From a virus, in the IMG/VR virus record IMGVR_UViG_3300010334_000283, positions 1 to 23,702 of that record: a DNA stretch of 23,702 nucleotides, one strand, 5' to 3'. Position numbers and translations under genes: made by a program. The notes beneath the pieces were generated by a model. The model ran no database searches. It was not told the DNA's origin and saw only the letters and a list, made by a program, of their open reading frames with translations. Positions 14,727 to 17,508 of the stretch are shown here, piece after piece (within the stretch, counting starts at the first letter, position 1; every line of letters begins with the position of its first letter).

Positions 14727-15121
14727 TTCAGGACGTGCCACGCTTCGTGCCACGGCGATGTGGGGCTAAGAGAGACCTTGTGCGACGACAGGTTGATCTC
14801 ACTCACGGGCATTACCCAAAAGGCTCTCGTTGCGACACTGACGAACACAAACGCGTCGATTTCGTCTTCTGCGTACATCTCTTTGCGTTGCTTGTTCTTC
14901 GCCCGCCTGACATTGAACTTGTACGACCCTGACTTTGGAGATGCCATCTGCTCGTAGACGCTCTTGACCTGAACCCGACACACCCTCGATCCGAAAACGC
15001 TTACGATGTCGTACCCGTGGTCATCCTCTGGCCTAGACGGAGAAATGCCGTTGATCAGCATCTCAGCCGAGGCGAGAAGACGTCCTACTTCTCCCACCGC
15101 CCGCGTAGAAATGGGAGACAT
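14723..15121 (-). CDS. PD-(D/E)XK endonuclease-like protein (PDDEXK_5-type)
   Basis: This encodes 132 residues. ATG 15121 has GGAG seven bases upstream and lies 37 bases inside the Gp88-like gene. The sequence AVGEVGRLLASAEMLINGIS is followed by DDHGYDIVSVFGSRVCRVQVKSV, which gives Asp38 and Q51-x-K53. Next is KFNVRRAKNKQRKEMYAEDEIDAFVFVS, then AFWVMPVSEI. This order resembles group I intron-associated and related PD-(D/E)XK nucleases. Together with the next two genes it forms a rare run of three different members of this superfamily. The exact substrate cannot be read here. Confidence 0.75.
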   Translation of the reverse strand: MSPISTRAVGEVGRLLASAEMLINGISPSRPEDDHGYDIVSVFGSRVCRVQVKSVYEQMASPKSGSYKFNVRRAKNKQRKEMYAEDEIDAFVFVSVATRAFWVMPVSEINLSSHKVSLSPTSPWHEAWHVLK

Positions 15122-15837
15122 TCTTTCGCTCCAGCGATCGCCCAGCCGTTAAAGCAACGGCGGCAAGTGCCGCAGACGCCTGCGATGTCGTCGCTTGCAT
15201 TGAGCGGGCAATCGTTTCCGTACAATTCTCCGCCCTTGGGGTCGTAGCCGTCGCGGAAGATCACAGGAGCCACGAACGGGTCTGGCGGAGTCTCGCCCTT
15301 GTCGCACTGGTAAGACCAGAACCATTGCAGCCCGGCCGGGGCCAGCCTCTGCATCTCTTCGAGCCGATCCCACGAAGACCTGTCTACAGAGAGATGCACG
15401 TAGACGTTCGAGGCAGGCTCGATCGCCGCCGCCAGCTTGGGCTTCCTGCTTACGATCCATTGCGGGACTTCTGGCATCAGGGGAGCGGCCCGGTTTATGC
15501 AGTCCACGCTCTCGGCGAACAAGTCTCCTCCGCCGTTCCAGCGAACGAAGTCGCGCTTCAGTCGACGAGTCCAGTCGGCAATGATCACAGCCATGTGCGT
15601 CGGCGAGGCCTTCACGGAGTTCAGAAGCCTGCTTTGCTTCTTGAGCGAGGCAGTCCATGTCGACGGCCCTTTGGCGAAGTAGCACGTCTCGGCACATACG
15701 ATCGACGGCGTGCATGTGTTGACGATCGGGAAATTCAGCGAGTGGCCGGTGACGCGGTTCGACGAAAACGGGTTCTCGCCGTCGGCGAGGAGGTCGCTGT
15801 AACTGACGTGTTTTTTGGCTAAATGTCGAACCGTCAT
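15085..15837 (-). CDS. Gp88-like cysteine-rich phage protein (possible Fe-S or radical-SAM-like)
   Basis: This encodes 250 residues from ATG 15837, with no strong ribosome site seen. The N-terminal part has GHSLNFPIVNTCTPSIVC and AETCYFAKGP: Cys42, Cys48 and Cys52 in a CxxxxxCxxxC array like the Gp88 and DUF5131 phage families. The middle contains PQWIVSRKPKLAAAIEP and NVYVHLSVDRSSWDRL, which look like TIM-barrel strands. A second cysteine set is at the C-terminus: NDCPLN then GVCGTCRRCFNG (Cys210, 222, 225, 228). Two clusters suggest Fe-S or zinc binding. It is the first gene downstream of the structured repeat array, separated from it by a terminator-like hairpin. Confidence 0.75.
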   Translation of the reverse strand: MTVRHLAKKHVSYSDLLADGENPFSSNRVTGHSLNFPIVNTCTPSIVCAETCYFAKGPSTWTASLKKQSRLLNSVKASPTHMAVIIADWTRRLKRDFVRWNGGGDLFAESVDCINRAAPLMPEVPQWIVSRKPKLAAAIEPASNVYVHLSVDRSSWDRLEEMQRLAPAGLQWFWSYQCDKGETPPDPFVAPVIFRDGYDPKGGELYGNDCPLNASDDIAGVCGTCRRCFNGWAIAGAKECLPFLRGRWEK

Positions 15838-15860: not shown

Positions 15861-15900
15861 AAAAGCCTCCCGGCGAGTTCTTGCGAATCTCGCCGAGAGG
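15861..15900 (-). terminator. Terminator-like hairpin at the end of the repeat array
   Basis: On the minus strand CCTCTCGGCGAG pairs with CTCGCCGGGAGG, giving 12 pairs with one U-G, around an 11-base loop, followed by CTTTTG. This is a good intrinsic-terminator shape with a short U run. It sits between the repeat array and the Gp88-like gene. Its first base on the plus strand (15866) lies exactly 126 bp before the first structured repeat, the same period as the array. Confidence 0.6.
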
Positions 15901-15991
15901 TGTTGCTGCCATGCCTCGCCGTGCTAAGCCACGCTCTGCCGCGCCAGGCCAAGCCCAACCGTGCCGCGCCTAAACACGCTCGCGTCACATC

Positions 15992-16036
15992 CCACCGCTT
16001 GGCATCGAAGCCAAGAGATCGCCAGCCGATCGGTGG
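15992..16036 (-). repeat. Structured 45-bp repeat, copy 1 (three-way junction)
   Basis: Minus-strand folding: outer stem CCACCG/CGGTGG, first arm ATCG-GCTGG-CGAT, two-base joint CT, second arm CTTGGC-TTCGAT-GCCAAG stacked directly on the outer stem. All pairs are Watson-Crick. The identical flanks extend the repeat to 15988-16038. It is identical to copy 2 through all 45 bases. Confidence 0.85.
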
Positions 16037-16117
16037 TTACAGATTCCAACCTCGCCTTGCCGTGCCCTGCCGCGACCAGCCTGACCGCGCCTCGCCACGA
16101 GCGACTTTCGCCGCATC

Positions 16118-16162
16118 CCACCGCTTGGCATCGAAGCCAAGAGATCGCCAGCCGATCGGTGG
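16118..16162 (-). repeat. Structured 45-bp repeat, copy 2 (three-way junction)
   Basis: This is identical to copy 1 across the 45-base core, extending to 16114-16164 with shared flanks. Its start is exactly 126 bp from copy 1 and exactly 126 bp from copy 3, while the 81 bases between copies are not similar apart from their five-base periodicity. Confidence 0.85.
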
Positions 16163-16243
16163 TTTGTTAGCCCAGCCCCAACAGGCCAAGCCTCACCAGA
16201 ACTTGCCATGCCTTACCGGACCCCAAGAAGATTTAATTCCATC

Positions 16244-16288
16244 CCACCGCTTGGCATCGAAGCCAAGTCATCGCCAACCGATCGGTGG
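16244..16288 (-). repeat. Structured 45-bp repeat, copy 3 (diverged only in unpaired bases)
   Basis: This differs from copies 1 and 2 at three bases. In the minus-strand fold the joint is GA instead of CT, and the first-arm loop is GTTGG instead of GCTGG. All three stems are unchanged. Extended flanks run 16240-16290. Confining every change to unpaired positions is what a structural constraint predicts, although three changes are few. Confidence 0.85.
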
Positions 16289-16353
16289 TTTCCTTAACGG
16301 GCCAAGCCGCACCTTGCCGGGCACTGCCGAGTCCCGCCGCGCCAGACCAAGAC

Positions 16354-16974
16354 TCAAGTCGCTTCAACAGTCTCCCGATTCGTCGGAGCCTGAGACGCCT
16401 TTTTGATTACCTCAGCCGTGAATCGACCGTTCTGCGGACGCCAATCGCCGAACCCGACTCGCGTTCCGGCAGTCTCGACCCACTGAATGACCTGAGACGA
16501 GTTGATGACCGAGTCCTCAAACTGAACCTCGATCACCGTCGACCAGTCCTTGAAGATCGGTCGAGTTCGCATCACTCTGCTCTGGCCCACCTTCACGCCA
16601 GCACAACACCGGAAGGACTCCTCCTGCCAGAGCGAGTCGGCGTCCCTCGGGCCTTCATATTGAAGCACGGCGTTCTTCTTGACGAAGCAGACAGACTTCG
16701 CGAGCTTGCCTTCCTTCGTGACCTTGGCGGCTTCGTAGATGGAGGCCTCGACGTTGCGTGCTGGGATGACCGGACCACTGTCCTCGTCGATGTAGAGGCT
16801 GGCCTTGAACTCGATCTCGGCGAGCCTCTCGTGATCAGCGTCAGTCTTCTTCTTCTTAGACGTGATCTGCTTCATCTGTTTTGAGTGAACGCTCAAAGGG
16901 TTTGCGAGTTCTCCGTTGTGCATCAAGAGGGGGGCGTCGCCAGTCAGGCGAAAAAGAAGCGATTTCCAAGCCAT
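16354..16974 (-). CDS. Conserved phage protein of unknown function with MRTRPxFxxW and GDWRPxxGRF motifs
   Basis: This encodes 206 residues. ATG 16974 has AAGGA eight bases upstream; the longer in-frame ORF is a shadow. It begins WKSLLFRLTGDAPLLMHN with a lysine cluster SKKKKTD near residue 40, then GPVIPARNVEASIYEAAK and GKLAKSVCFVKKNAVLQYEG. The C-terminal part has SRVMRTRPIFKDW and AGTRVGFGDWRPQNGRF. I know this motif set from many phage proteins without an assigned function; the shape of the motifs recalls Cas7/RAMP-like nucleic-acid binders, but that is speculative. It lies directly upstream of the repeat array and its stop codon abuts it. Its first 119 bases overlap the HNH gene. Confidence 0.75.
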   Translation of the reverse strand: MAWKSLLFRLTGDAPLLMHNGELANPLSVHSKQMKQITSKKKKTDADHERLAEIEFKASLYIDEDSGPVIPARNVEASIYEAAKVTKEGKLAKSVCFVKKNAVLQYEGPRDADSLWQEESFRCCAGVKVGQSRVMRTRPIFKDWSTVIEVQFEDSVINSSQVIQWVETAGTRVGFGDWRPQNGRFTAEVIKKASQAPTNRETVEAT

Positions 16975-17263
16975 GATGAGAATCCTTACGTTGCTGAGGG
17001 GTACTAGAAACAACACCAATCGACACCGGCCTACCCGCGTATCGCCTACTGCGAATGACGCTGGTAATTGCTTCGTGACACTGCGAACAAAGCGTGATCA
17101 GATCGCCAACAACTTCCTCGCTGCCAAGTCTTTCGTATGTTTTGTGATGCACTTCGAGCCGCCATTCCGATCCGTCGTGGAGGCACGTCTGACACTTGTG
17201 TCCGTCGATCGCCAGTCGCTGCGACCTTTTTTCAGGCCACGACTTTCCGTAGTCGATGTTCAC
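16856..17263 (-). CDS. HNH endonuclease
   Basis: This encodes 135 residues. The start is GTG 17263, which overlaps the upstream stop (GTGA) and has GAGGT seven bases before it. The HNH core is complete: SQRLAIDGHKCQTCLHDG gives Cys24 and Cys27, LEVHHKTYERLGSEE gives His39/His40, and VGDLITLCSQCHEAI gives Cys59 and Cys62-His63. This is the zinc-stabilised phage HNH type, used in packaging, homing or general nicking. The last ~40 residues overlap the next gene in another frame and look unlike a folded domain, so the C-terminus may be an accidental extension. Family assignment is firm. Confidence 0.85.
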   Translation of the reverse strand: MNIDYGKSWPEKRSQRLAIDGHKCQTCLHDGSEWRLEVHHKTYERLGSEEVVGDLITLCSQCHEAITSVIRSRRYAGRPVSIGVVSSTPQQRKDSHHGLEIASFSPDWRRPPLDAQRRTRKPFERSLKTDEADHV

Positions 17264-17508
17264 TTCGTGAACCTCACGTAAAGCGGCCCATTCGGCCCCA
17301 CGTAACAACCAAGCGTGTTAAACGACAAGAACTCTTCCGCCCCCTCGTGCGTCATGCCATCACGCTCGACAAGAATGTCGATGCACTTCCGGATGTCGTA
17401 TACGGCTACGTGAGCGTGATGGTGATTGACTGTGTAGCCGACGAAAGCCTTTTCGAGACCGTCGGCGAGCAGGGCGTCTGGGTTGAGTTCTGCAAGGTCT
17501 TCGATCAT
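17260..17508 (-). CDS. Conserved phage/bacterial hypothetical protein, 82 residues
   Basis: This encodes 82 residues from ATG 17508, with GAGGC eight bases upstream. It reads IEDLAELNPDALLADGLEKA, then FVGYTVNHHHAHVAVYD, then IRKCIDILVERDGMTHEGAE, then EFLSFNTLGCYVGPNGPLYV. This 'LNPDALLADG ... AVYD ... CI..LV.RDGM..E.A.EF..FN..G.YVG' pattern is widespread in phages and some bacteria, but no biochemical role is known to me. The histidine run near residue 29 is notable. It is translationally coupled to the HNH gene by a GTGA overlap. Confidence 0.8.
   Translation of the reverse strand: MIEDLAELNPDALLADGLEKAFVGYTVNHHHAHVAVYDIRKCIDILVERDGMTHEGAEEFLSFNTLGCYVGPNGPLYVRFTK

What the first reader, a model, noticed from the sequence alone, without database searches (positions are those of the whole stretch)
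15861..16353. Exact 126-bp tandem array of three-way-junction repeats, a candidate new phage non-coding RNA
Three 45-bp sequences start at 15992, 16118 and 16244, exactly 126 bp apart. Each can fold perfectly into a three-way junction: CCACCG/CGGTGG, ATCG/CGAT and CTTGGC/GCCAAG, with only a two-base joint. Copy 3 differs at three bases, all unpaired. The 81 bp between copies are not similar in sequence, yet length is fixed. I know no named RNA family with this layout.
Basis: seen in the sequence. Interest (0 to 1): 0.92.

Follow-up and report, generated by a model that had tools for sequence, protein, structure and literature searches.

The report
Phage RNA-guide array with tRNA-like separators
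The repeats belong to a recently described phage weapon (VIPR) in which a Cas7-like protein carries coded guide RNAs; here four guides are separated by three small tRNA-like RNA folds, and one guide decodes to the start of a gene in rival phages while sparing the phage's own copy.

Summary
The three 45-nt three-way-junction (3WJ) repeats are real. That gene encodes Vipr: 2.5e-33 to the PDB chain "SUSP1 Vipr", and a high-confidence model with the Csm3/Cas7 fold. So this is a VIPR locus (PMC13142463): Vipr plus four guide RNAs (vrRNAs).

The 3WJs are separators between guides. They carry an acceptor-like stem, a D-arm-like hairpin with invariant GG, and a T-arm-like hairpin with a UUCGA loop. 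137 model matches covary on both sides in 14 of 15 pairs. A model built without the window ranks the three reported units first in the window. Actinophage VIPR loci use similar elements, one contig uses a complete tRNA-Gly, and many more copies stand alone before genes. Nothing matches Rfam.

Read with the published one-base-skip code, vrRNA4 matches 28/30 bases over the GP88 start codon of two rival phages (shuffles at most 22), but only 18/30 of its own GP88. Five other vrRNAs in related loci also have targets.

Known kind (VIPR), apparently new array architecture. Cutting at the separators is inferred, not shown.

The parts
16354..16974 (-). vipr gene: RAMP/Cas7-like Vipr protein, phrog_4652 (ATG at 16974; an upstream TTG at 17019 is possible)
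   Evidence: phmmer 2.5e-33 to PDB 36pp_D 'SUSP1 Vipr protein'; AF2 pLDDT 95.6; Foldseek top hits Csm3/Cas7, E 3e-6; phrog_4652 8e-60
16299..16353 (-). vrRNA1 repeat tract: 11 units from GTCTT to GGCCC, starting directly after the vipr stop codon
16244..16288 (-). separator 1: tRNA-like 3WJ (P1 CCACCG/CGGTGG, P2 ATCG-GTTGG-CGAT, P3 CTTGGC-TTCGAT-GCCAAG)
   Evidence: leave-out covariance model E 8.8e-4, best hit in the window; fold
16168..16222 (-). vrRNA2 repeat tract: 11 units
16118..16162 (-). separator 2: tRNA-like 3WJ
   Evidence: leave-out covariance model E 0.015; fold
16047..16096 (-). vrRNA3 repeat tract: 10 units
15992..16036 (-). separator 3: tRNA-like 3WJ
   Evidence: leave-out covariance model E 0.015; fold
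15906..15980 (-). vrRNA4 repeat tract: 15 units; decodes to the GP88 start-codon region of rival phages
   Evidence: 28/30 in L015/L016 with the 1-nt skip, shuffles at most 22
15866..15900 (-). strong hairpin after the last tract (CCTCTCGGCGAG/CTCGCCGGGAGG, then CTTTTG), terminator-like; takes the place of a fourth separator
   Evidence: -26.9 kcal/mol, z -6.6; not called by the consensus terminator scan, which allows loops of 3-8 only
15085..15837 (-). GP88 gene (PF17338) just downstream; the phage's own copy of the gene family that vrRNA4 matches in rivals
   Evidence: Pfam 3e-12; vrRNA4 matches it at only 18/30
16856..17308 (-). HNH endonuclease ORF overlapping the start of vipr; possible vap (accessory) gene, not tested
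   Evidence: PF01844 1.9e-6; a corresponding ORF precedes vipr in L014

Best explanation
This is a VIPR locus. One minus-strand transcript runs from vipr through four vrRNA tracts to a terminator-like hairpin. Vipr, a Cas7-like RAMP, would bind each vrRNA, with GGY as scaffold and NN as code, and read double-stranded DNA as NNxNNx..., silencing the matched gene. The three reported 45-nt 3WJs are minimal tRNA mimics (acceptor-like, D-like and T-like arms, no anticodon arm) placed between consecutive guides. The likeliest role is RNA punctuation: they mark where the polycistronic transcript is cut into single vrRNAs, probably by host tRNA-maturation nucleases, as tRNAs do in engineered tRNA-gRNA arrays. 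vrRNA4 targets the start of GP88 in competing phages and mismatches the phage's own GP88. Shown by computation: the protein family and fold, the repeat code, the covarying tRNA-like structure, the placement between tracts, the target match. Inferred: transcription, RNP formation, cleavage and the enzyme, and silencing in this phage. Confidence is about 0.97 for VIPR membership, 0.6 for cleavage at the 3WJs and 0.8 for the vrRNA4 target.
For: Vipr identity and fold. Repeat tracts directly after the vipr stop. Linkage: 85 of 120 contigs fetched only by an (GGCNN)8 DNA pattern encode Vipr; among 29 loci fetched by GP88 only L014 and L028 have Vipr, and both have tracts. 3WJ family: covariation on alignment A3 (6 pairs, 36 cells, 0 of 500) and A4 (14 of 15 pairs, 184 cells, 0 of 500); leave-out model ranks the window's units 1-3, next hit E 0.85. 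GG of the P2 loop invariant. Acceptor plus T-arm elements after 28 of 375 tracts against 0 on the reverse strand, a mean of 0.3 in shuffles and 1 of 1532 control windows. A full tRNA-Gly(UCC) lies 9 nt after a tract in L213, and ARAGORN calls Gordonia phage Trine's element 'tRNA-???'. Separators number one fewer than tracts in the window, L243, L244 and L250. Target: 28/30 for vrRNA4, shuffles at most 22; with skip 1, 6 of 39 tracts exceed all shuffles by more than 1, with skip 0 or 2 none; in all six the skipped base falls on the wobble position.
Against: No RNA-seq, so transcription and cleavage are unproven. The preprint describes an invariable 3' tail that belongs to the mature vrRNA, so the 3WJ could be that tail. 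P3 has a 6-nt rather than a canonical 7-nt T-loop, and there is no anticodon arm or CCA, so tRNA enzymes might not act on it. Only 15 of 163 Vipr loci show this element class by the strict descriptor. In L324 an eighth separator precedes a gene, so the one-fewer rule is not universal. Targets were found for only 1 of the 4 window vrRNAs.
Confidence: 0.82

Rival explanations
1. VIPR locus, but the 3WJ is the structural 3' tail of each mature vrRNA, a handle bound by Vipr, and not a cleavage signal.
For: The preprint reports an invariable structured 3' tail in SUSP1-type vrRNAs; the 3WJ lies 3' of tracts 1-3, 0-10 nt from the detected tract end.
Against: The last vrRNA of the window, L243, L244 and L250 has no 3WJ after it, yet window vrRNA4, L244 vr8 and L250 vr6 have clear targets. 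The same family stands alone before genes without pentamer tracts in most of 99 folded copies. Another locus uses a whole tRNA gene at this position.
Confidence: 0.3
2. The 3WJ is a self-cleaving ribozyme, as in the hammerhead-interspersed VIPR arrays of the preprint.
For: Three-way junction placed between guides; hammerhead-interspersed arrays are reported for some VIPR types.
Against: No CUGANGA...CGAAA core in the window, no ribozyme family in Rfam up to E 10 other than a sub-threshold group II intron match at E 2, junction linkers of only 0-3 nt, and conservation concentrated in D-like GG and T-like UUCGA loops.
Confidence: 0.05
3. In-frame protein repeats: the plus-strand 168-aa ORF (15900-16406) is a real gene with a 42-residue repeat.
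For: 126 = 3 x 42, so the frame is open across the array.
Against: No Pfam match; the sister phage's spacing of 140 bp does not keep the frame; stem changes are compensatory; the tracts follow the vipr strand.
Confidence: 0.01
4. The 3WJ is a DNA element (origin, packaging site or recombination hairpin), not an RNA.
For: Palindromic 45-nt units in tandem can also form in DNA (sequence).
Against: Single-copy relatives lie on the sense strand about 15-20 nt upstream of start codons of many unrelated genes; T-like and D-like loops; a true tRNA at the same place; after tracts the element is never on the reverse strand, 0 of 375.
Confidence: 0.04

Closest known systems
VIPR (Viral Interference Programmable Repeat), preprint PMC13142463, SUSP1/P. 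fulva type II
   Same: Vipr homologue, flanking GGY/NN tracts of 10-15 units, 1-nt-skip target in rival phages with the skip at the wobble base
   Different: Separators here are tRNA-like 3WJs, not the SUSP1-type tail or hammerheads; no vap1-like gene directly after vipr; the preprint's main text does not mention tRNA; its supplement could not be read
tRNA (RF00005) and tRNA-like structures
   Same: Acceptor-like stem, D-like arm with GG, T-like arm with UUCGA; some relatives (L164, L253, L326) have a further arm; L213 uses a complete tRNA-Gly
   Different: No anticodon arm, no CCA, 6-nt T-like loop in the window; not recognised by ARAGORN or Rfam
Engineered polycistronic tRNA-gRNA arrays (from memory)
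   Same: tRNA-like units alternate with guide RNAs
   Different: Natural and phage-encoded; processing here untested
Class 1 CRISPR-Cas (Csm3/Cas7)
   Same: RAMP fold of the protein; repeated RNA with variable guide parts
   Different: No other cas gene recognised near the locus, no CRISPR repeats; noncontiguous code
Hammerhead-interspersed VIPR arrays (PMC13142463)
   Same: Structured RNA between vrRNAs
   Different: No hammerhead core or Rfam match here

Membership tests
VIPR | Vipr protein (ancestral RAMP) | tested here: met
   2.5e-33 to SUSP1 Vipr; Csm3/Cas7 fold
VIPR | vrRNA tracts of 9-16 YNNGG (GGY/NN) repeats next to vipr | tested here: met
   Four tracts of 10-15 units on the vipr strand, the first right after the stop codon
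VIPR | Targets read by NN with a 1-nt skip, mostly in competing elements | tested here: met
   vrRNA4 28/30 over the GP88 start of rivals, skip 1 only; no target found for vrRNA1-3
VIPR | Invariable structured 3' tail on each vrRNA | tested here: inconclusive
   3WJ follows tracts 1-3; tract 4 is followed by a different, terminator-like hairpin
VIPR | vap accessory gene | tested here: inconclusive
   HNH ORF overlaps the vipr start; vap families are not named in the libraries searched
VIPR | vrRNAs expressed and bound by Vipr | not testable with these tools
   needs sRNA-seq and pull-down
Hammerhead ribozyme | CUGANGA and GAAA core at a 3WJ | tested here: not met
   no core in the window, no Rfam hammerhead match
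tRNA | Full cloverleaf recognised by ARAGORN or Rfam | tested here: not met
   0 tRNAs in the window, no RF00005 match at E up to 10
tRNA-like 3WJ element family described here | P1/P2/P3 3WJ with covarying stems, GG in the P2 loop, U/AUCRA in the P3 loop | tested here: met
   leave-out covariance model, covariation, alignment
tRNA-like 3WJ element family described here | Cleavage by tRNA-maturation enzymes | not testable with these tools
   inferred only

The most novel reading that the evidence does not exclude
A large family of minimal tRNA mimics, absent from Rfam, is used by phages as general RNA punctuation. It separates guide RNAs in VIPR arrays and sits before genes in mRNAs, so that host tRNA-maturation enzymes cut both, making this a natural counterpart of engineered tRNA-gRNA arrays. 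In addition, the last guide of such an array tends to target the rivals' version of the gene next to it, an RNA-guided allelic exclusion.
Probability: 0.4. Interest if true: 0.88.

Novelty: new variant of a known kind. Interest (0 to 1): 0.78.

Why it matters
VIPR was described only in 2026. An independent locus whose guide decodes, with the published skip rule, to the start codon of a rival's gene while sparing its own copy is strong outside support for the code. The tRNA-like separators suggest how polycistronic guide RNAs could be matured without ribozymes or dedicated nucleases, and point to an uncatalogued structured-RNA family spread through phages. Both are directly testable.

Tried and rejected
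Protein-repeat reading (frame lost in the sister phage). Hammerhead or other Rfam family (none convincing). True tRNA in the window (none). DNA similarity to named phages (none). Alignment A1 as a query for related loci failed because it has too little conserved sequence. Targets of vrRNA1-3: not found among the loci held, in 26-34 whole records, or, for vrRNA2, in an exact scan of viral contigs. No exact match to the 11 central NN of vrRNA4 in viral contigs, so the best known target still has two mismatches. Host assignment from the 3WJ pattern failed: 119 of 120 genome hits did not fold (chance matches); one, L474, a Pseudomonadota metagenome bin, does. 126-bp period as a functional constraint: rejected. 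Literature searches for pentanucleotide repeats in phages found nothing useful before the PDB name led to the VIPR preprint.

Full report
What is there. The three 45-nt units are at the stated places, 126 bp apart, with three unpaired differences in one copy, and fold on the minus strand as described. Their surroundings hold a stronger signal than the repeats themselves. The DNA between and around them is built of GG[C/T]NN pentamers on the minus strand: 32 matches against 2.0 expected, 0 of 100 shuffles. Four tracts result, 16299-16353, 16168-16222, 16047-16096 and 15906-15980, of 11, 11, 10 and 15 units. The first starts directly after the stop codon of the upstream gene; the last is followed by a strong hairpin and CTTTTG. 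The promoter/terminator scan did not list that hairpin, but it allows loops of 3-8 only.

The gene. The ORF at 16354-16974 (-) is phrog_4652, of unknown function in PHROGs. Of 120 viral contigs fetched only by an (GGCNN)8 DNA pattern, 85 encode a homologue, so the repeat tract and the gene belong together. The background frequency of the gene in viral contigs was not measured. As an indirect control, among 29 loci fetched by the neighbouring GP88 gene only two carry the homologue (L014, L028), and both have tracts. A profile of 72 homologues, and the window protein alone, hit PDB 36pp_D, 'SUSP1 Vipr protein' (1.5e-40 and 2.5e-33). AlphaFold2 gives pLDDT 95.6, and Foldseek's best matches are Csm3/Cas7 subunits (E 3e-6). 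The preprint PMC13142463 describes VIPR: a phage RAMP protein with vrRNAs of 9-16 YNNGG repeats, read by a one-base-skip code.

The three-way junctions. In related VIPR loci the same place is taken by elements of one plan: an acceptor-like stem P1, a short hairpin P2 whose loop holds GG, and a hairpin P3 with a UUCGA loop. By a strict descriptor (P1 plus a UUCRA T-like loop within 75 nt), 28 of 375 tracts in 15 of 163 loci have one. This compares with 0 on the opposite strand, a mean of 0.3 (maximum 2) in shuffles and 1 of 1532 control windows; five of the 28 are from the window and its sister. In L213 the place is taken by a complete tRNA-Gly(UCC) 9 nt after the tract. ARAGORN calls the element of Gordonia phage Trine 'tRNA-???'.

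Covariation and leave-out test. Thirty sequences without any from the window or its sister show six pairs changed on both sides, 36 cells, 0 of 500 shuffles. A covariance model of these ranks the three reported units first to third in the window, E 8.8e-4, 0.015 and 0.015, with the next hit at 0.85. The seed pattern was chosen because its plan resembled the window's, so the test is not blind, but no window sequence was in the model; E-values are rough. Over 137 matches, 14 of 15 pairs change on both sides, 184 cells, 0 of 500 shuffles; that alignment was fitted to the model. In a plain MAFFT alignment of 33 separators the two Gs of the P2 loop are invariant. No Rfam family reaches its threshold.

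Where the elements sit. Ten loci found by the element pattern, not by Vipr, hold a Vipr gene of one close group, and those whose elements were listed carry several tandem copies, up to eight, about 105-160 nt apart. In L243, L244 and L250, as in the window, there is one element fewer than tracts; L324 has an eighth element before a gene. Most other copies have no pentamer tract nearby and lie about 15-20 nt upstream of start codons of many unrelated genes. An element used both between guides and before genes is best read as punctuation of transcripts rather than as a part of the guide. This step is inference; the rival that it is the vrRNA 3' tail is given 0.3.

What the guides say. Read with the one-base skip, vrRNA4 matches 28 of 30 coded bases over the start codon of GP88 in L015/L016, 27 in L012/L013, 26 in L011, but 18 in its own GP88 and 21 in the sister's. 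Four hundred shuffles of the 13-unit code reach at most 21 of 26 against 24 observed. Among 43 whole records only four rivals match with up to 3 mismatches, and the reversed control has none. For 39 tracts of seven loci, skip 1 gives six that beat all shuffles by more than one; skips 0 and 2 give none. All six place the skipped base at the wobble position, and none matches its own genome piece above background. The sister phage's last vrRNA also hits GP88 of other phages (21/22). The last vrRNAs of L250 and L244 hit the starts of genes that resemble the gene following their own array. vrRNA1-3 of the window found no target in what could be searched.

Verdict. VIPR membership is secure on protein, repeats and code; tail and vap are inconclusive, and expression was not testable. 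The tRNA-like separators are not mentioned in the preprint's main text, but its supplement was out of reach, so novelty is set at a new variant of a known kind.

Noticed in passing
L213:3660-3731: A complete tRNA-Gly(UCC) gene lies 9 nt after a vrRNA tract and before the next gene.
   Followed up: partly
L246-L361 (e.g. L251:3910-3954, L255:4728-4772): Many viral contigs carry a free-standing copy of the tRNA-like 3WJ just upstream of a ribosome-binding site, without pentamer tracts, before many unrelated genes.
   Followed up: partly
L164:3714-3773; L253:5814-5876; L326:1764-1826: Relatives of the 3WJ with an additional hairpin between P2 and P3, close to a four-arm tRNA plan.
   Followed up: no
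L324:10825-10930; L244:8494-8561 and 8160-8229; L250:9610-9685; L014:3814-3945: vrRNAs of related loci decode to conserved genes of other phages (GP88, replication-type genes and their starts).
   Followed up: partly
L099:1965 onward: A 158-kb viral contig has about 32 GGYNN tracts near its Vipr gene, far more than other loci.
   Followed up: no
L157-L159 (Gordonia phages MakoManhole and Trine, Mycobacterium phage LittleE): Cultured actinophages carry VIPR loci annotated as hypothetical proteins, with T-arm-bearing separators; good laboratory material.
   Followed up: partly
window 16856-17308: An HNH endonuclease ORF overlaps the start of vipr by over 100 nt in another frame; a similar ORF precedes vipr in L014.
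   Followed up: no
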